Shown here: one piece after another, positions 34,535 to 40,734 of the stretch
Numbering within the stretch: position 1 is the stretch's first letter
Layout: each line of letters opens with the position of its first letter
NCBI GenBank assembly: GCA_027622555.1
Contig: JAQBYJ010000050.1
Location: 1-40,734 of the forward strand
DNA from: Verrucomicrobiota bacterium
GTDB taxonomy: Bacteria > Verrucomicrobiota > Verrucomicrobiia > Opitutales > UBA2995
Direction of reading: 5' to 3'
DNA: 40,734 bases
Notes under the pieces: model-generated
What the model was told of the DNA's origin: nothing
Databases searched by the model: none
The model's input: the letters and a program-made list of their open reading frames with translations, nothing else
Program-made: the position numbers and the translations under genes

Positions 34535-34682
34535 GATCGCAGTGCAATTGGGTTCATTTCCAAGGTCAAGTGCAAGCTGCCCAAGTTTTAGCTATTCCCC
34601 GATCTCTACCTTCAACAAACCTGCACCATGGAAAGTTCATAACTCCCGTATCAAAATCGATTAAAGAATGATTGATAATAGT

Positions 34683-34696
34683 GAACATATGTATAC
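34683..34696 (+). promoter_or_regulatory. Weak LexA-like dyad upstream of dinB
   Basis: GAACATATGTATAC at 34683-34696 resembles a GAAC-N4-GTTC LexA box with two mismatches in the right half, about 38 bp before the dinB ATG. DinB genes are commonly SOS-controlled, which motivated the search, but the match is poor. Confidence 0.2.
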
Positions 34697-34733
34697 TTAT
34701 TTACATTTTTCCAAAACTTTTGGACAACACAAA

Positions 34734-35930
34734 ATGACACCGTTCGTACATCTAGATGCCGACGCCTTCTTCGCGTCGGTCGAGCAGGCTGCCGACCCGC
34801 GCCTGCGCGGCATCCCCATGGCCGTAGGCGGACGCAAACGTGGCATTATCGCCGCAGCTTCCTACGAAGCACGGCGGCTCGGTGTCTATACGCCCATGCC
34901 AACTCAGCGAGCGCTGCAGGTTTGCCCGGAGCTGGTCGTTGTACCCGGCAACTTTGAGTTGTATGAACAATTTTCCGACTGGATCTTTGGTATGTGCGAG
35001 GAGCTTACTCCCCTGGTTGAGCGCTGCTCCATAGATGAGGGCTACATGGATTTATCCGGCACCTGGAACCTATCGCAAGAGGGTATGATCACTCAGGTTC
35101 AGAAACTTGATAAGGAAATCCACTCCTGGCTAAAGATCACTCTCTCCGAAGGATTGGCCACCAACAAAATCGTGTCCTCTGTAGCCAGCAAGCTGCACAA
35201 GCCCAACGGTTTTCTCGTCGTCCCGGAAGGGTCAGAAGCCGAGTTCATGGGTGCCCTCCCCCTAGGTCGTATGCCTGGTATCGGCCCACGCACTGAAGAA
35301 GCGCTTCGGGCTATTGGAGCCCGTCGTATTAAAGACTTGATTACTCTGGGTGCAGAACGTCTCCACCCCTTCCTCGGAAAGACCACTGACTCCTTTCTTC
35401 AACTTGCACGCGGTGTTGATGATCGGCGCATCGTACTCGAACGCGAACCGGCCAAGTCTTACTCCCAACAACACACCTTCAAACAGGATATCGGTGACGA
35501 TGACGAAATCATCCGACACCTGAAAACCATGATAGACGACGAAATGATCCGTATGCGTGATGACGGAAAACAAGCCCGGACCCTCAGCATCAAGATTCGT
35601 TACACCGACATGGAAGAAAGCGAATCCTCTCGTAGCCTGCACGAACCCAGTAGCCTGGAAAACGATTTCTATCCCTTCGTCGAACCCATGGTCAAAAACC
35701 TCTGGCAACGCCGAGTTCACCTGCGCCTCGTCGCCGTCCGTTTCTCTCGCCTCTACGACGCTTACGAACAACTGGAGTTCTTCGACCGTAAACGTCAGCG
35801 CCTCCGACAACTCAGCCACGTTATCGATAAGGTCAACGAAGACTACGGCAAATACACCGTGCAGCGCGCTTATCGTTTAGGCCTGACCAGCCGCGGAGGA
35901 GGCAAACGCAAAACACCGTTTAATCCTTAG
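34734..35930 (+). CDS. dinB: DNA polymerase IV (Y-family)
   Basis: A translesion polymerase of 398 residues from ATG 34734 (MTPFVHLDADAFFASVEQ), preferred over in-frame upstream starts such as 34668 that precede the conserved opening. The catalytic acids are Asp8 (HLDAD) and Asp101-Glu102 in CSIDEGYMDLSG. The steric gate is the Phe-Phe of DAFF. The thumb shows SVASKLHKPNGFL and MPGIGPRTEEALRAIG; the little-finger domain follows to about residue 370. The tail (RGGGKRKTPFNP) is basic. The first 250 bp are visibly richer in GC than flanking genes, which may point to transfer. Confidence 0.95.
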   Translation: MTPFVHLDADAFFASVEQAADPRLRGIPMAVGGRKRGIIAAASYEARRLGVYTPMPTQRALQVCPELVVVPGNFELYEQFSDWIFGMCEELTPLVERCSIDEGYMDLSGTWNLSQEGMITQVQKLDKEIHSWLKITLSEGLATNKIVSSVASKLHKPNGFLVVPEGSEAEFMGALPLGRMPGIGPRTEEALRAIGARRIKDLITLGAERLHPFLGKTTDSFLQLARGVDDRRIVLEREPAKSYSQQHTFKQDIGDDDEIIRHLKTMIDDEMIRMRDDGKQARTLSIKIRYTDMEESESSRSLHEPSSLENDFYPFVEPMVKNLWQRRVHLRLVAVRFSRLYDAYEQLEFFDRKRQRLRQLSHVIDKVNEDYGKYTVQRAYRLGLTSRGGGKRKTPFNP

Positions 35931-35974: not shown

Positions 35975-37267
35975 TCAATGAGAGTTCTTCCCAAGCTCAA
36001 AAATAGCGGAACCAATTGCAGAAAGCTGTTCTTGAGTTAGCGCATGATTTTCTAGAGCCGAACTAACTTCCGACTGAAGAGCCGATAGATCCTTCAGCGC
36101 TTCTCCCCGCCGTAACTCAAATACCAAGCGATTAATCCGTCCACTGATTCGACCAAGCGCAGGACGGAGCTCTTCGACCAGATCGGGCGGATCGGTCATC
36201 GTAGCTGGGCCTTCGAGCGTTTTGAATTGGATCGCCTTGGCCGCCTCGATCTGTGCTTTGAAAAAAGCCTCCACTGCGGAAGTATCGGGCGGACCCACGC
36301 TCTGACGCTGGGATTCTTCGATTACGCCCTTCACAGCCGCCTCAATGACACGTGCTTCCTGGGCCAGGTCCTCGACAGGTTTTCCAAGAACGCGTTTACT
36401 TTCGGCCACCGCGACCATCAAAGACAGGCGCTCATCCATGGCGGCAAGTAATGCGGGTAGCGGAGTTGCGGTTTTGAATTCGTTGCCGGGAGGAAGATAG
36501 GCTTGCCGGAGATTCCCCAAGGTTCCATCCGCTTCTTTGGCCAGCAACCAGGCATCCAATTGATCGGCCAGTTCGACCTTCTCCGGGTGAACGAGCCAGG
36601 CCTTGTTATCCCGGGAGAATGGAGCCAAAGCTGTTGCATCCGGCAACCGTCGCAACCAGTGAGGCGCTTCCATGGTATCGGTTACTATGGCATCTACCTT
36701 GTTCTCAGTTAACAGGACCGGGACCCTTTGGTTGTCATTGGAAGTTACAATGAACGCATTTGGAAATGTCTTGCGGGTAACCCGTTCCAGATGGCCGCCG
36801 TGATTTACCCCAATCCGAATTCCCGGATGGTTGAAAGATTCAAGTGGTGGATTTTTCCCACGCTCACCCACAATGACCACGGCACCGCTTCTTGCGATGG
36901 GGACGGTAAACCGACCGACCATAGACCTGTCTTCCCTCACGGTTACACCACTCATAGCCACATCAAATTTTCCCGTTTCCAGGTCTTTCAAAAGATCAAC
37001 CCACTGGAAGATCACGAATTCCACATCCATCCGGCGATCGGCAGCAAAAGCTTTCGCCAATTCGATTTCGAATCCTTCCAATTTGTCATTCTCCTTGGTT
37101 GAACTGAAGGGAGCGTAGTCACCGGACATTCCAACCCTTAGGATCTTTGTGGCTTCAAGGTCGGTTCCAAGGAGGCCATCGCTCAAGCCAACGAGTAGAC
37201 TAGAAAGCAAAAATAATCGCGTAACGAAACTAAAGCACTTCGATATTAATCGACAGGGTTTGGACAT
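35975..37267 (-). CDS. Exported cyclohexadienyl dehydratase / chorismate mutase (PheC-AroQ gamma) fusion
   Basis: A 430-residue periplasmic protein. A signal peptide covers residues 1-about 33. A solute-binding-fold domain (42-265) resembles cyclohexadienyl dehydratase: RVGMSGDYAPFSS, GFEIELAKAFA, IGVNHGGHLERV (153-163) and VTDTMEAPHW (195-204) match PheC more than amino-acid-binding proteins. A helical AroQ-gamma chorismate mutase (about 270-385) has LLAAMDERLSLM (Arg280), SKRVLGKPVED and FFKAQIEAAKAIQ (335-347). Together they would turn chorismate to prephenate, then to phenylpyruvate or phenylalanine, outside the cytoplasm. In the PIEDLTREQ-type motif the conserved Arg is Gln302-303 (DLAQEA), which may weaken mutase activity. 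Confidence 0.75.
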   Translation of the reverse strand: MSKPCRLISKCFSFVTRLFLLSSLLVGLSDGLLGTDLEATKILRVGMSGDYAPFSSTKENDKLEGFEIELAKAFAADRRMDVEFVIFQWVDLLKDLETGKFDVAMSGVTVREDRSMVGRFTVPIARSGAVVIVGERGKNPPLESFNHPGIRIGVNHGGHLERVTRKTFPNAFIVTSNDNQRVPVLLTENKVDAIVTDTMEAPHWLRRLPDATALAPFSRDNKAWLVHPEKVELADQLDAWLLAKEADGTLGNLRQAYLPPGNEFKTATPLPALLAAMDERLSLMVAVAESKRVLGKPVEDLAQEARVIEAAVKGVIEESQRQSVGPPDTSAVEAFFKAQIEAAKAIQFKTLEGPATMTDPPDLVEELRPALGRISGRINRLVFELRRGEALKDLSALQSEVSSALENHALTQEQLSAIGSAIFELGKNSH

Positions 37268-37366
37268 GGAGTAAAATTCTCTTCATCAGACCGTGCAGTC
37301 TAGTCTTTATTTTCGGACTAATTTTCGTAGGGTGTAACTAACTATGCGGGGAATATTGAAAGTAGC

Positions 37367-37470
37367 CGTAGGGCCAGTTGCTTGCAACTCGGCCTACGCG
37401 GTGCACAACGGTCCCGGACAAGGCGTCGATGTATGCCGTAGCGTCAGTTGCTTGCAACTCGACCTCTGCG
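37367..37470. repeat. Two REP-like palindromes, 70 bp apart
   Basis: Copy one (37367-37398) is an imperfect stem, CGTAGGGCCAGTTGC-TT-GCAACTCGGCCTACG. Copy two (37437-37470) repeats CGTAG..CAGTTGCTTGCAACTCG..CTC.GCG with drift. Both centre on AGTTGCTTGCAACT and are offset by exactly 70 bp. They lie between the PheC-AroQ gene and the CWC gene. Such stems are characteristic of REP/BIME-type dispersed elements; only this pair is seen here. Confidence 0.7.
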
Positions 37471-37908: not shown

Positions 37909-39114
37909 TTAAGCGTCCGGACGAGTCCAGACAAAGACCTTGGTTTGGGTATTGAGTGGGAAAACAACATTCACCGCCTTGGACGCGGGATTATTGCTTG
38001 AGGAGTTATCGATACTGTCTTCGTAAATGATGCGATCGCCATTCACAGGTTGTAATACAACAGCAATATTCACCACCTTGTTAAAGTTCTCGGCACGAAC
38101 CGTAACTGTCTTGTTTGGATCTTCATTAAAATCTAAGAGCACAAACTCAGATGTTGTTGTATCCAATGCCACATTTGTCCCAGCAACCTCCGTAATATCC
38201 AAACGCGGTGTAGGAGTGGGAAATACAACCAGATTTGAACCCACACTGGTGAAAGCAGAAGGATCAAAAGTAATGCTGATACCGGACCGATCAATAGTAT
38301 CCACACGGATTCGACCAAACCCTGCAAAGCTATTCCCCAAAGCAGCATAATCATTTCTGAGGCTTTCTGCTCTTATTGCCCCTGAGCCAAAAACATGGGG
38401 CGCGACTAGACGAACCGCGCCGCCACTACCTCCGTTATAAGCACCAGCAAAAAATCTACCTCCCTGAGCTAAAATTACCCCTGTCGAAGCGAGCTCAACC
38501 TGTGTATTGGAAGCGATCAATAGAGCACCACCTCCACCGCCTCCTCCATTTCCCGGAGTTCCAGAGGTACCACCCCCTCCCGATCCGCCAGTCAAGGGTA
38601 TCAACAGAGGCGAACCGTAGACAGCTCCTTCACCAGTACTGGAACCACTTACAGATTGATCCCCGTAACTTCCAGATCCCGCTCCTGTGCTACCAGTACT
38701 ATTGCCGCCCGCTTTTCCTCCACCAGGACCTAAACCGTCTCCGGGAGACACCCCGGCACTTCCAGGAGCTCCACCATCGAAACCACCAGGACCAGGTTGG
38801 CCACCTACACTAGTGCTTCCCTCTCCTCCTGATACATTGATAGTTCCGGCAATCGTTACATTACCGGTCGCCAAGAGATACACCGGGGTGTTGAACTCAT
38901 TTTTCGTGAATGCAAGAGTGAAACCTGCGGCAACGTCTATGGTCGTGGCATGTATGATACCATCAGGAGGTAAAACCATAGTTGTGTTTGAGGTAATATT
39001 AATTGCACCATCACTCTCGTCACTTCCTGAATCAAAGTTGATCTGGGCAAGAACTTGCGCCATGCAGAGAATTAATGAACTCCCTGTAAGAATTATTGTT
39101 TTATAGGTTTTCAT
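37909..39114 (-). CDS. Secreted glycine-rich surface protein
   Basis: A 401-residue exported protein of unrecognised family. Residues 1-23 are a signal peptide (MKTYKTIILTGSSLILCMAQ, cut after VLAQ). Residues about 55-100 look like an extracellular beta-solenoid or adhesin start (DGIIHATTIDVAAGFTLAF, VTIAGTINVSGG). Residues 100-200 are Gly/Ser-rich (GPGGFDGGAPGSAG, GGGGGGGALLI), probably flexible. The rest is beta-rich (VILAQGGRF, GAIRAESLRNDY) to the end. It sits 43 bp after the adjacent repeat protein on the same strand. Likely a cell-surface or matrix protein. Confidence 0.6.
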   Translation of the reverse strand: MKTYKTIILTGSSLILCMAQVLAQINFDSGSDESDGAINITSNTTMVLPPDGIIHATTIDVAAGFTLAFTKNEFNTPVYLLATGNVTIAGTINVSGGEGSTSVGGQPGPGGFDGGAPGSAGVSPGDGLGPGGGKAGGNSTGSTGAGSGSYGDQSVSGSSTGEGAVYGSPLLIPLTGGSGGGGTSGTPGNGGGGGGGALLIASNTQVELASTGVILAQGGRFFAGAYNGGSGGAVRLVAPHVFGSGAIRAESLRNDYAALGNSFAGFGRIRVDTIDRSGISITFDPSAFTSVGSNLVVFPTPTPRLDITEVAGTNVALDTTTSEFVLLDFNEDPNKTVTVRAENFNKVVNIAVVLQPVNGDRIIYEDSIDNSSSNNPASKAVNVVFPLNTQTKVFVWTRPDA

Positions 39115-39157: not shown

Positions 39158-40734
39158 TCAGGGTTCAACGGGATCGGTTACTTCCACAGGTGGATTAGCC
39201 AAGGTGACTCCAGAAGAAAGATCTCCTGAAACGGAACTGTAGAGCATGACACTCGCCGGAGGATGAGCCACAGTTACGCCAGGAGGCAGATCCCCCGTAT
39301 CAGCCGATAAGGTCAATACACTCACGGGCGGTCGGGCCAATGTTACGTTCGCCGCCAAATCCCCGAGCCCGGCAGAGACGAAAAGCATCACACTGGTCCG
39401 TGGATTTGCCAGGGTGACTCCAGAAGAAAGATCTCCGTTATTGGATGACAATGTAAGTACTGAAACCGGTGGTCGGGCCAGGGTAATTCCAGGGGACTGG
39501 ACTCCAACGTTAGAACTTAAGGCCAGAACGTTTACTGGAGGATTCGCAAACACCATTTGGAATGGTATCGCATTAGAATCGATGGGACTGCTGCCAGAAA
39601 TAAACTCAGCTTCATCTGAGAATCCATCTCCATCGGAATCAATTAAATTGATATTTGTTCCCGCCAGCACTTCGCGGAAATCGGGAAGACCATCCATATC
39701 GGCGTCTTCGAGGTTGTCATTAATACCGTCCATATCAGAATCCTTCTCACCCAGATTAAATCCCAGGAAGGCTTCCACATCGTTTGTCACTCCGTCACCA
39801 TCAATATCCTCTTTACCATCAGAAATTCCGTCATCATCTGAATCGGGATCGTTCGGATCGAGCCCGACGTTCAATTCGATCACATCGCTCAGACCATCCT
39901 GATCCGTATCGGCATCACCCAAAGCGAGAAAAACCGAAACAAACTTTTGCCTGAGGGCATTTCCAATATTGTCTGTAACAGAAGTTTCAACAGTGATGCG
40001 GAAATATCCAGAATCGAGCACCTCGTCCAAAAGGTAGCTGATAATGCTACCATCTTCACTGAAGGAGAAAAGACCACCGGTAAATAGTAGATCATCAGGT
40101 GTGTTAAATAATCCATCCTCGCCCACTCCAATCAGATAAGCGCTTAACTCATCAATTGTGTTAGGATCAATCGCCTCAGAGAAAAAGAGAGTAAACCCAT
40201 TGGTATCACCTATGATGGCATTTTGGGATGGAAGTACTGAATTTACCCTTGGAGGCGTTGAATCAGGGGTAAGGTTCAGAGTAATCGGATCGGAAAACGA
40301 GGCGTTCCCACCCGTATCACTGGCCCGGGCAATTACTTCAATTGAGTTCGTCACATCCAAAGAGCCAGCAGGTAAAGTCACTTCAAAGGGAAAATTGCCA
40401 TCGGTTTTGATCAGTTGATCATCCACATAGAACTCAACATTACGCACCTGGACATCGTCTTGCACATCTACGCGCACCAAGAAAAGAGATCCTTCTTCGA
40501 TTGATGCTCCATCTTCAGGTTCTACAATCGTAACGGTCGGTGGCTGACCTAGACTGTCAAAAGCGAGATAGTTCACGACATGCAGTCCAGCGGTGTGGTC
40601 CGCCACATAGCCAATGCCGTTATAGATAGACCCTGTTCGAAAAGCCTTCCGGAAGGAAGGTTTTCTTTTTTTGGTTCGTAGTTCAGGCTTGAGGACTCTC
40701 CGGGAGAGGTTTGAGAAGGAGTCGAAAGCTGTCG
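39158..40734 (-). CDS. Surface protein with Ig-like, TSP3 and C-terminal tandem repeats (5'-partial)
   Basis: The frame is open to the right window edge, so the N-terminus is outside. From about 40636 to 40570 an LVIVD-type propeller end is seen (GIGYVADHTAGLHVVNYLAF). Then come a bacterial Ig-like domain (PPTVTIVEPEDGASIEEG to about residue 110 of the GTG-40606 reading), a second Ig/Big_5-like domain (about 115-225), Ca-binding thrombospondin type-3 repeats (230-345: DTDQDGLSD, DPDSDDDGISDG, DSDMDGIND, DSDGDGFSD) and 5.5 tandem repeats at the C-terminus. No sorting signal is visible. The basic stretch before 40637 is unlike the rest and may not be genuine coding sequence. Confidence 0.7.
   Translation of the reverse strand, partial: TAFDSFSNLSRRVLKPELRTKKRKPSFRKAFRTGSIYNGIGYVADHTAGLHVVNYLAFDSLGQPPTVTIVEPEDGASIEEGSLFLVRVDVQDDVQVRNVEFYVDDQLIKTDGNFPFEVTLPAGSLDVTNSIEVIARASDTGGNASFSDPITLNLTPDSTPPRVNSVLPSQNAIIGDTNGFTLFFSEAIDPNTIDELSAYLIGVGEDGLFNTPDDLLFTGGLFSFSEDGSIISYLLDEVLDSGYFRITVETSVTDNIGNALRQKFVSVFLALGDADTDQDGLSDVIELNVGLDPNDPDSDDDGISDGKEDIDGDGVTNDVEAFLGFNLGEKDSDMDGINDNLEDADMDGLPDFREVLAGTNINLIDSDGDGFSDEAEFISGSSPIDSNAIPFQMVFANPPVNVLALSSNVGVQSPGITLARPPVSVLTLSSNNGDLSSGVTLANPRTSVMLFVSAGLGDLAANVTLARPPVSVLTLSADTGDLPPGVTVAHPPASVMLYSSVSGDLSSGVTLANPPVEVTDPVEP
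39161..39554 (-). repeat. 5.5 tandem repeats of about 23 residues in the surface protein
   Basis: The unit is (A/R)PPVSVLTLSS..GDLSSGVTLA. Successive copies start NPPVNVLAL, RPPVSVLTL, NPRTSVMLF, RPPVSVLTL, HPPASVMLY and NPPVEV. At DNA level, copies share long stretches (for example the segments at 39192 and 39408 share the text GCCA..GTGACTCCAGAAGAAAG), which favours recent duplication. Copies 2/4 and 3/5 resemble each other most, suggesting a two-unit period. Confidence 0.85.
40639..40673 (+). terminator. Terminator-like hairpin at the surface-gene 5' boundary
   Basis: On the plus strand GAAAA-g-CCTTCC (40639-40650), the GNRA-type loop GGAA, GGAAGG and TTTTC (40655-40665) form a stem followed by TTTTTTT, a classic intrinsic terminator. 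Nearby CTCTC-CGG-GAGAG (40696-40708) is a second small stem. Both fall in the frame of the surface protein, suggesting that the DNA here was intergenic before a rearrangement. Confidence 0.5.

What the first reader, a model, noticed from the sequence alone, without database searches (positions are those of the whole stretch)
35975..37267. Exported PheC-AroQ gamma fusion with a substituted mutase residue
The gene joins a signal peptide, a cyclohexadienyl-dehydratase-like domain and a gamma-class chorismate mutase. That would give a two-step phenylalanine route from chorismate in the periplasm. Fusions of this kind exist but are uncommon and their purpose is unknown. In this copy the conserved Arg of the REQ motif is replaced (QEA), a single transition from CGG to CAG, so the mutase may be impaired or altered.
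Basis: partly seen in the sequence, partly recalled or inferred. Interest (0 to 1): 0.6.

Follow-up and report, generated by a model that had tools for sequence, protein, structure and literature searches.

The report
Rewired exported chorismate-processing fusion enzyme
This gene encodes an exported two-part enzyme that probably rearranges and then dehydrates the shikimate-pathway compound chorismate outside the cytoplasm, and its unusual active-site residues are a stable trait shared by a small family found in two bacterial phyla rather than damage to one copy.

Summary
The fusion is real: an intact 430-residue ORF with a signal-like N-terminus, a cyclohexadienyl-dehydratase (CDT) domain and an AroQ-gamma chorismate mutase (CM) domain. 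Its best solved relatives are the characterised exported CDT-CM enzymes 8CQ4 and 8CQ6 (E 8e-44, 7e-42). The Arg-to-Gln change at the CM Arg72 position is also real, but it is not private damage. All 17 full-length members of one clade (3 Opitutales, 14 Myxococcales) carry Gln72 with Arg/Lys at position 75. The same pair occurs outside the clade in 3 of 37 AroQ-gamma rows, including Yersinia pestis 2GBB. Domain trees favour a fusion separate from the published beta-proteobacterial one. 16 of 17 members show a lipobox pattern; the window copy does not. The genome keeps a cytosolic PheA. Most likely this is an exported, usually lipid-anchored chorismate-to-prephenate enzyme with a retuned second domain: a new variant of a known kind. 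Activity and physiological role are untested.

The parts
35975..37267 (-). Exported CDT-CM fusion gene, 430 aa
   Evidence: Intact ORF; best PDB match 8cq4 over residues 22-403
37160..37267 (-). Signal-peptide-like N-terminus, residues 1-36 (end of signal not determined): basic n-region, hydrophobic stretch, no lipobox Cys
   Evidence: Hydropathy; 16 of 17 clade members match a lipobox pattern here, this copy does not
36494..37141 (-). Cyclohexadienyl-dehydratase-like (type-3 solute-binding fold) domain, residues 43-258
   Evidence: Pfam SBP_bac_3; CDT structures among best hits
36881..36883 (-). Ala129 at the PaCDT Lys100 position
   Evidence: A in 17 of 17 clade members; P in L110; K in 10 of 11 other Glu173-bearing rows
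36788..36793 (-). His159-Leu160 at the PaCDT Thr132-Asn133 positions (GGHLE motif)
   Evidence: H-L in 17 of 17; I-L in L110; T-N in 10 of 11 other Glu173-bearing rows
36668..36670 (-). Glu200 at the PaCDT general-acid Glu173 position
   Evidence: Kept in 17 of 17; Glu173 essential per PMC10520331 section 13
35984..36469 (-). AroQ-gamma chorismate mutase domain, residues 267-428
   Evidence: Pfam CM_2 at 273-347; VIA-align Z 20.7 to 8pnj over 267-428
36395..36397 (-). Lys291 at the catalytic Lys60 position (JbCDTCM Lys287)
   Evidence: Lys in 49 of 49 aligned rows
36359..36361 (-). Gln303 at the Arg72 position (codon CAG)
36350..36352 (-). Arg306 at position 75 (codon CGT), proposed stand-in for Arg72
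   Evidence: R/K in 17 of 17 clade members and in 3 of 3 outside rows with Gln72; stand-in role is inference

Best explanation
The gene makes an exported two-domain enzyme of the CDT-CM type. It belongs to a lineage, probably fused independently of the published ones, found so far in one Opitutales genus and in Myxococcota, where it is usually a predicted lipoprotein. Its C-terminal AroQ-gamma domain most likely still converts chorismate to prephenate (inferred): Arg280, Lys291, Lys344, Gln347 and Arg373/Arg377 are present, and the charge lost at position 72 is supplied from about one helical turn on by Arg306. The N-terminal CDT-derived domain keeps the general acid Glu200 (Glu173), the ring-binding Tyr and Trp, Asn128 and Asn152. 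It has a rebuilt side-chain-carboxylate end (Lys100 to Ala, Thr132 to His, Asn133 to Leu), so it is probably a dehydratase with altered rate or substrate preference. Acting outside the cytoplasm, the protein would consume chorismate released by lysed neighbours or leaked by the cell, for scavenging or sensing; housekeeping phenylalanine synthesis is left to the cytosolic PheA. Shown: intact ORF, domain identity by sequence, conservation of both sets of changes, the trees, presence of PheA. Inferred: export, all catalysis and the role.
For: Domain identity. Q72 plus R/K75 in 17 of 17 members from two phyla, with CAG/CAA and CGN/AAG codons. dN/dS 0.16-0.22 (CDT) and 0.14-0.44 (CM) in six partly overlapping Myxococcales pairs. 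Outside the clade Q72 occurs in 3 of 37 AroQ-gamma rows, all with K/R75, against 4 of 33 R72 rows, Fisher p 0.005; collapsed to lineages, the clade counted once, p 0.007-0.03. Those three lie elsewhere in the CM tree. CDT triple change in 17 of 17 with Glu173 kept. CDT clade 98/96 and CM clade 100/99. Lipobox pattern in 16 of 17. Cytosolic PheA present. All six published fusions assayed in vitro had both activities and chorismate Km below 7 uM (PMC10520331 section 7).
Against: No activity was measured for any clade member. That the Q72 precedent 2GBB is active rests on a figure legend; its kinetic values were not seen. The stand-in role of Arg306 is unproven: no coordinates could be inspected, and one outside row (L074) has His72 with Val75, so a lost Arg72 is not always paired with a basic 75. 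AlphaFold confidence was low (pLDDT 62, pTM 0.42). Lys100, Thr132 and Asn133 are conserved in all nine published fusions, so losing all three could abolish prephenate dehydration. No gene neighbour is shared by more than 3 of 19 stretches, which gives no support to sensing or scavenging.
Confidence: 0.55

Rival explanations
1. The N-terminal domain has lost dehydratase activity and works as a ligand-binding or sensing domain fused to a working chorismate mutase; the mutase makes a ligand that the solute-binding fold holds.
For: Lys100, Thr132 and Asn133 replaced in 17 of 17. Two non-CDT binding proteins also have Ala at the Lys100 position (L118, L119). Asp170 becomes Asn and the JbCDTCM Lys225 position becomes Val in 14 of 14 Myxococcales members. 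In G004 and G007 the gene lies beside what reads as a two-component system. Stocker et al. also favour signalling.
Against: The general acid Glu173 and Asn128 are kept in 17 of 17 and Gly131 too; a pure binding domain has no evident need of Glu173. Apart from G004 and G007, no transporter or receptor gene recurs beside it in the 19 stretches compared.
Confidence: 0.25
2. Ordinary exported CDT-CM enzyme: both domains work on chorismate and prephenate much as in JbCDTCM and give phenylpyruvate; the substitutions are neutral alternatives.
For: Same domain order and near full-length match to 8cq4. Six of nine PaCDT residues are kept in the window copy.
Against: Three pocket residues fully conserved in the published fusions (PMC10520331 section 5) are replaced in every member. 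Both domain trees place the clade apart from JbCDTCM and DsCDTCM.
Confidence: 0.17
3. The window copy is a decaying gene with an impaired mutase, as the R-to-Q change was first read.
For: The window copy lacks the lipobox Cys. One Myxococcales copy, L035, is truncated.
Against: Intact ORF, 49-50 % identical to two congeners that carry the same residues. The motif is present in 17 of 17 with synonymous codon changes. dN below dS was measured only in Myxococcales pairs; pairs with the window copy are saturated.
Confidence: 0.03

Closest known systems
Exported CDTCM enzymes of beta-Proteobacteria (JbCDTCM 8CQ4, DsCDTCM 8CQ6; PMC10520331)
   Same: Domain order CDT then CM, export signal, a cytosolic PheA-type enzyme in the same organism, Val76/Lys106/Gln109 pattern in the CM site, Glu173 in the CDT site
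   Different: CM Arg72 to Gln with Arg75; CDT Lys100 to Ala, Thr132 to His, Asn133 to Leu; no WLxxxW linker and no Cys in the mature part of this copy; relatives are predicted lipoproteins; other phyla; domains branch apart in both trees
Exported CMCDT enzymes of gamma-Proteobacteria (AfCMCDT 8CQ3)
   Same: Both domains in one exported chain; Ala at the Thr105 position; the AfCMCDT CM domain is the top structural match to the CM model (Z 20.7/20.3)
   Different: Opposite domain order; Arg72 in AfCMCDT and canonical CDT site
Y. pestis secreted AroQ-gamma chorismate mutase (2GBB)
   Same: Gln at position 72 with Lys at 75, Val76, Ala105, Lys106, Gln109; Z 18.6 to the CM model
   Different: No CDT domain; lies in another part of the CM tree
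P. aeruginosa PheC (PaCDT, 5HPQ/3KBR)
   Same: Tyr22, Trp60, Asn128, Asn152, Thr169 and Glu173 equivalents in the window copy
   Different: Monofunctional; Lys100, Thr132 and Asn133 are replaced here

Membership tests
Exported bifunctional CDT-CM fusion | CDT and AroQ-gamma CM domains in one chain | tested here: met
   Pfam and PDB matches to both domains
Exported bifunctional CDT-CM fusion | N-terminal export signal | tested here: inconclusive
   Basic then hydrophobic N-terminus and a lipobox pattern in 16 of 17 relatives fit export; no signal-peptide predictor was available
[quoted passage not shown]
   6 of 9 kept; Lys100, Thr132 and Asn133 replaced
Exported bifunctional CDT-CM fusion | CM Arg72 equivalent present (as in JbCDTCM, DsCDTCM and AfCMCDT; for the other published fusions not seen) | tested here: not met
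   Gln303 here, Arg in those three
Exported bifunctional CDT-CM fusion | CM and CDT activity | not testable with these tools
   Needs enzyme assays
AroQ-gamma chorismate mutase | Fold and family profile | tested here: met
   CM_2 above Pfam cut-off; Z 13.4-20.7 to AroQ-gamma structures
AroQ-gamma chorismate mutase | NCBIfam TIGR01806 curated cut-off (74.15 bits) | tested here: not met
   56.8 bits, E 2.3e-15
AroQ-gamma chorismate mutase | Catalytic Lys60 and Arg49 | tested here: met
   Lys291, Arg280
Cyclohexadienyl dehydratase (PheC) | General acid Glu173 | tested here: met
   Glu200
Plain amino-acid-binding protein | Residues of the non-catalytic AncCDT-1: Gln128, Thr131, Val173 | tested here: not met
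   Asn, Gly and Glu here

The most novel reading that the evidence does not exclude
Both domains were retuned together for a different substrate pair: an exported, lipid-anchored enzyme line that makes and aromatises a prephenate-like compound with another side chain (for example an arogenate-type or 4-amino compound), or that turns chorismate from lysed prey into a ligand its own CDT-derived domain captures, as a chorismate sensor in myxobacteria and their neighbours.
Probability: 0.2. Interest if true: 0.75.

Novelty: new variant of a known kind. Interest (0 to 1): 0.5.

Why it matters
Why bacteria export chorismate-processing enzymes is an open question. The published survey found nine fusion species, all Proteobacteria, with one domain order per class (PMC10520331, abstract and sections 4 and 16). 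This lineage adds two phyla, a probably separate fusion event, predicted lipid anchoring and fixed changes in both active sites. It therefore gives a natural test of which residues the exported function needs. The Gln72 plus Arg/Lys75 pair also suggests that one of the listed AroQ active-site cations can be replaced more than once in evolution, with a basic residue about one helical turn on.

Tried and rejected
Decay of this copy: rejected, because relatives share the residues. Plain binding protein or unrelated helical domain: rejected. Gene neighbourhood as a clue to function: 19 stretches were compared with a simple ORF picker of my own, not a gene finder. Apart from the fusion family itself, no family was shared by more than 3 of them. 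G004 and G007 share the genes on both sides of the fusion; I named these two-component and RND efflux genes by reading the sequences, not by a family search. In two stretches (L133, L009) the picker chose another frame over the fusion, and in L136 my motif filter did not flag it. AlphaFold from a three-row alignment gave pLDDT 62 and pTM 0.42. Foldseek ranked 8cq4 and 8cq6 first but with TM about 0.3 and rmsd near 14. In the second look the CM half superposes at rmsd 1.9-3.3, while the CDT half as a whole does not (rmsd about 9-11); one of its lobes does (6gpm, 90 residues, rmsd 2.4). No coordinates were available to measure whether Arg306 reaches the active site. Plasmid records: 21 with CDT/SBP-part matches, 0 covering 80 % of the query. 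The genus-mate search also matched a binding protein in G006 (E 5e-4), and the order search matched single-domain binding proteins in G138, G230 and G1201 without a CM domain. Literature: the FEBS J 2008 paper on 2GBB and the Genome Biology 2001 paper are not held. Searches for the fusion outside the known paper showed none among the titles and abstract starts listed (7 of 7, 20 of 26, 20 of 59 and 20 of 1,318 papers); this is no proof that none is in print.

Dropped before counts: L035 (truncated, lacks the CM motif region) and L021 (same gene as L009). L012 and L004_G006 were aligned but are not CDT-like; L004_G006 was left out of the CDT tree, while L012, L118 and L119 were kept in it as binding-protein rows. 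The lipobox was judged by a text pattern, and the motifs of L110-L114 were read by a text pattern, not from the alignment.

Full report
Observation. The ORF at 35975-37267 on the minus strand is intact and 430 residues long. Pfam assigns SBP_bac_3 (43-258) and CM_2 (273-347). Three NCBIfam chorismate mutase models match at E 6e-16 to 2e-15, below their equivalog cut-offs. Against the PDB the protein hits the bifunctional enzymes 8cq4 (Janthinobacterium, E 8.4e-44, residues 22-403) and 8cq6 (Duganella by its structure title; E 7.2e-42), then stand-alone and ancestral CDTs. It has one match in its 6.0-Mb genome, itself. The same genome has a 360-residue CM-prephenate dehydratase of the cytosolic PheA kind whose CM domain keeps Arg in a REAEV motif.

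What is known of the kind. Stocker et al. 2023 (PMC10520331; abstract and sections 4, 5, 7, 10, 13, 15, 16 and 19 read) describe exported CM-CDT and CDT-CM fusions in nine proteobacterial species. Both activities were shown in vitro for the six soluble enzymes of the seven made. CM Km is below 7 uM; channelling was not seen, and feedback inhibition was absent in the two enzymes tested (abstract and Discussion). The nine PaCDT active-site residues are fully conserved in the fusions they aligned, but only half of the ten CM residues are; the text I read does not name Arg72 as changed. The role is unknown and signalling is suggested. Their search considered only hits classified to species level.

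The substituted mutase residue. Residue numbers were fixed through JbCDTCM; the 12 JbCDTCM positions named in sections 10 and 13 held the expected letters. Lys287 equals Lys60, which puts Arg299 at Arg72 and Val303 at Gln76. In the window protein the Arg72 position is Gln303 and position 75 is Arg306; Arg280 (49), Lys291 (60), Asp300 (69), Lys344 (106), Gln347 (109) and Arg373/Arg377 are present. The same Gln72 plus basic 75 is in 17 of 17 full-length clade members: the window, two congeners (G004, G007) and 14 Myxococcales. Gln is CAG or CAA and residue 75 is CGN or, once, AAG. dN/dS in six partly overlapping Myxococcales pairs is 0.14-0.44 in the CM part and 0.16-0.22 in the CDT part; the two Opitutales pairs tried are saturated or nearly so at synonymous sites. 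Nine members, all Myxococcales, also have Val at Asp69.

Controls for that residue. I compared 37 AroQ-gamma rows outside the clade. They are the hits over the TIGR01806 cut-off in 16 of 398 Pseudomonadota genomes and in 10 of 387 genomes of the window's own phylum; four further rows from the order of G887, where 7 of 197 genomes matched and three of those rows were already held; one Saprospiraceae row (L019); L110; and five PDB rows. Arg72 is in 33, Gln in 3 and His in 1 (L074, with Val at 75). All three Gln72 rows (2GBB of Y. pestis, L042, L048) have Lys or Arg at 75, against 4 of 33 Arg72 rows (Fisher p 0.005; 0.007-0.03 with related rows collapsed and the clade counted once). Relatedness makes these p-values approximate. 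In the CM tree the 17-member clade is supported 100/99, and the three Gln72 rows sit in another group of five rows (98/98) together with two Arg72 rows; the simplest reading is that the pair arose at least twice. *YpCM (2GBB) is named in the legend of a figure comparing kcat/Km of natural CMs (PMC7762937, passage; values not seen; the FEBS J paper is not held). The AroQ site is described as dominated by four cationic residues (PMC9910054, passages). That Arg306 replaces the lost charge is my inference from helix spacing and this covariation.

In the CDT domain 17 of 17 clade members have Ala for Lys100, His for Thr132 and Leu for Asn133, in a GGHLE motif. Tyr22, Trp60, Asn128, Asn152 and Glu173 are kept in 17 of 17, and Thr169 is Thr or Ser. 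Of 11 rows outside the clade and L110 with Glu at 173, 10 have Lys, Thr and Asn; the exception, L012, a single-domain binding protein, also lacks Asn128 and Asn152. L110 has Pro, Ile and Leu there and groups with the clade. In JbCDTCM the Thr132 equivalent contacts, and the Lys100 equivalent contacts through water, the sulfonate of bound MES, which resembles the product but did not inhibit. So the change lies at the side-chain carboxylate end, while the leaving-group end is kept. Against non-catalytic AncCDT-1 (PMC7683729, passages) the protein keeps the CDT-type Asn128, Gly131 and Glu173, so the domain probably derives from a CDT rather than from a plain binding protein.

Origin and distribution. 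A pattern scan of 84,980 species' genomes, made from two conserved peptides of the three Opitutales proteins, gave 5 loci. Two are fusions, in an uncultured Opitutales bacterium and in Hyalangium versicolor (Myxococcota, Myxococcales), and three are single-domain; it missed 13 Myxococcales members found later. Whole-genome searches found the clade in 3 of 8 genomes of the window's own family (3 of 6 of its genus) and 3 of 243 of its order, all in its genus (7 of 243 matched at E 1e-20; the other four are the inverted fusion of G167 and three single-domain proteins). In a phylum sample of 387 only the window genome matched at E 1e-30. In Myxococcota, 15 of 145 genomes of the Hyalangium order matched, one with a truncated copy, and L110 lies in a genome outside that order (15 of 195 matched at E 1e-40). 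In the CDT tree the clade with L110 is supported 98/96, while JbCDTCM and DsCDTCM group with a stand-alone Phyllobacterium CDT (95/92). In the CM tree JbCDTCM and DsCDTCM fall with 15 monofunctional rows, apart from the clade, but that split is weaker (92/89), and L110's CM domain groups with that of the inverted fusion L073 (99/86). Separate fusion is the simpler reading. The program warned of long branches, and one early fusion with later splits is not excluded. Patchy presence in two phyla suggests horizontal transfer (inference). A second surprise is L073, an inverted CM-CDT fusion of 433 residues with Arg72 and canonical CDT residues in another Opitutales family. So domain order is not tied to proteobacterial class.

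Export. 16 of 17 members match a lipobox pattern before the CDT domain, so they are predicted lipoproteins; the window copy has a hydrophobic signal-like N-terminus without one. No signal-peptide predictor was at hand.

Structure. AlphaFold from three sequences gave pLDDT 62 and pTM 0.42. The CM half aligns with 8pnj/8cq3 (Z 20.7/20.3), 2gbb (18.6) and M. tuberculosis 2fp2 (16.6) at rmsd 1.9-2.7. The CDT half is poorly modelled (rmsd about 9-11 as a whole), so its identity rests on sequence.

Context. In the window the gene runs towards Pol IV (34668-35930, +) on one side; on the other, about 640 bases upstream, is a protein without Pfam match on the same strand (37909-39114). In G004 and G007 it lies on one strand between what read as a response regulator-kinase pair and RND efflux genes. 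No neighbour family was shared by more than 3 of 19 stretches.

Verdict. The fusion is confirmed and is a variant of a known kind. The mutase substitution is a fixed lineage trait with a likely compensating charge, not damage to one copy. The dehydratase site is more altered than the mutase site. I put about 0.7 on chorismate mutase activity and about 0.5 on some cyclohexadienyl dehydratase activity; the role outside the cytoplasm remains inferred.

Noticed in passing
L073 (genome G167, match at C38:36238-36567; 433 aa open frame): An inverted CM-CDT fusion with Arg72, Lys100, Thr132 and Asn133 in another family of the window's order, although that domain order was reported only from gamma-Proteobacteria.
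   Followed up: partly
L110 (genome G953, contig C190:2919-3866): A CDT-CM fusion from Myxococcota outside the Hyalangium order, with GGILE in the CDT site and Arg72; its CM domain groups with the inverted fusion L073 while its CDT groups with the clade, suggesting domain exchange.
   Followed up: partly
L035 (genome G443, contig C176:23698-24018): A truncated Myxococcales copy lacking the CM motif region, a pseudogene or an assembly break.
   Followed up: no
window 37365-37400 and 37435-37470: Two copies of a 36-nt element with a near-palindromic core (AGTTGCTTGCAACT) upstream of the gene; 2 pattern matches in the window, none in 100 shuffles.
   Followed up: no
   Followed up: partly
window 39158-40606 (-): Protein with Ig-like and TSP3-repeat matches running to near the window end, beside a glycine-rich protein at 37909-39114 (-) without Pfam match.
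   Followed up: no
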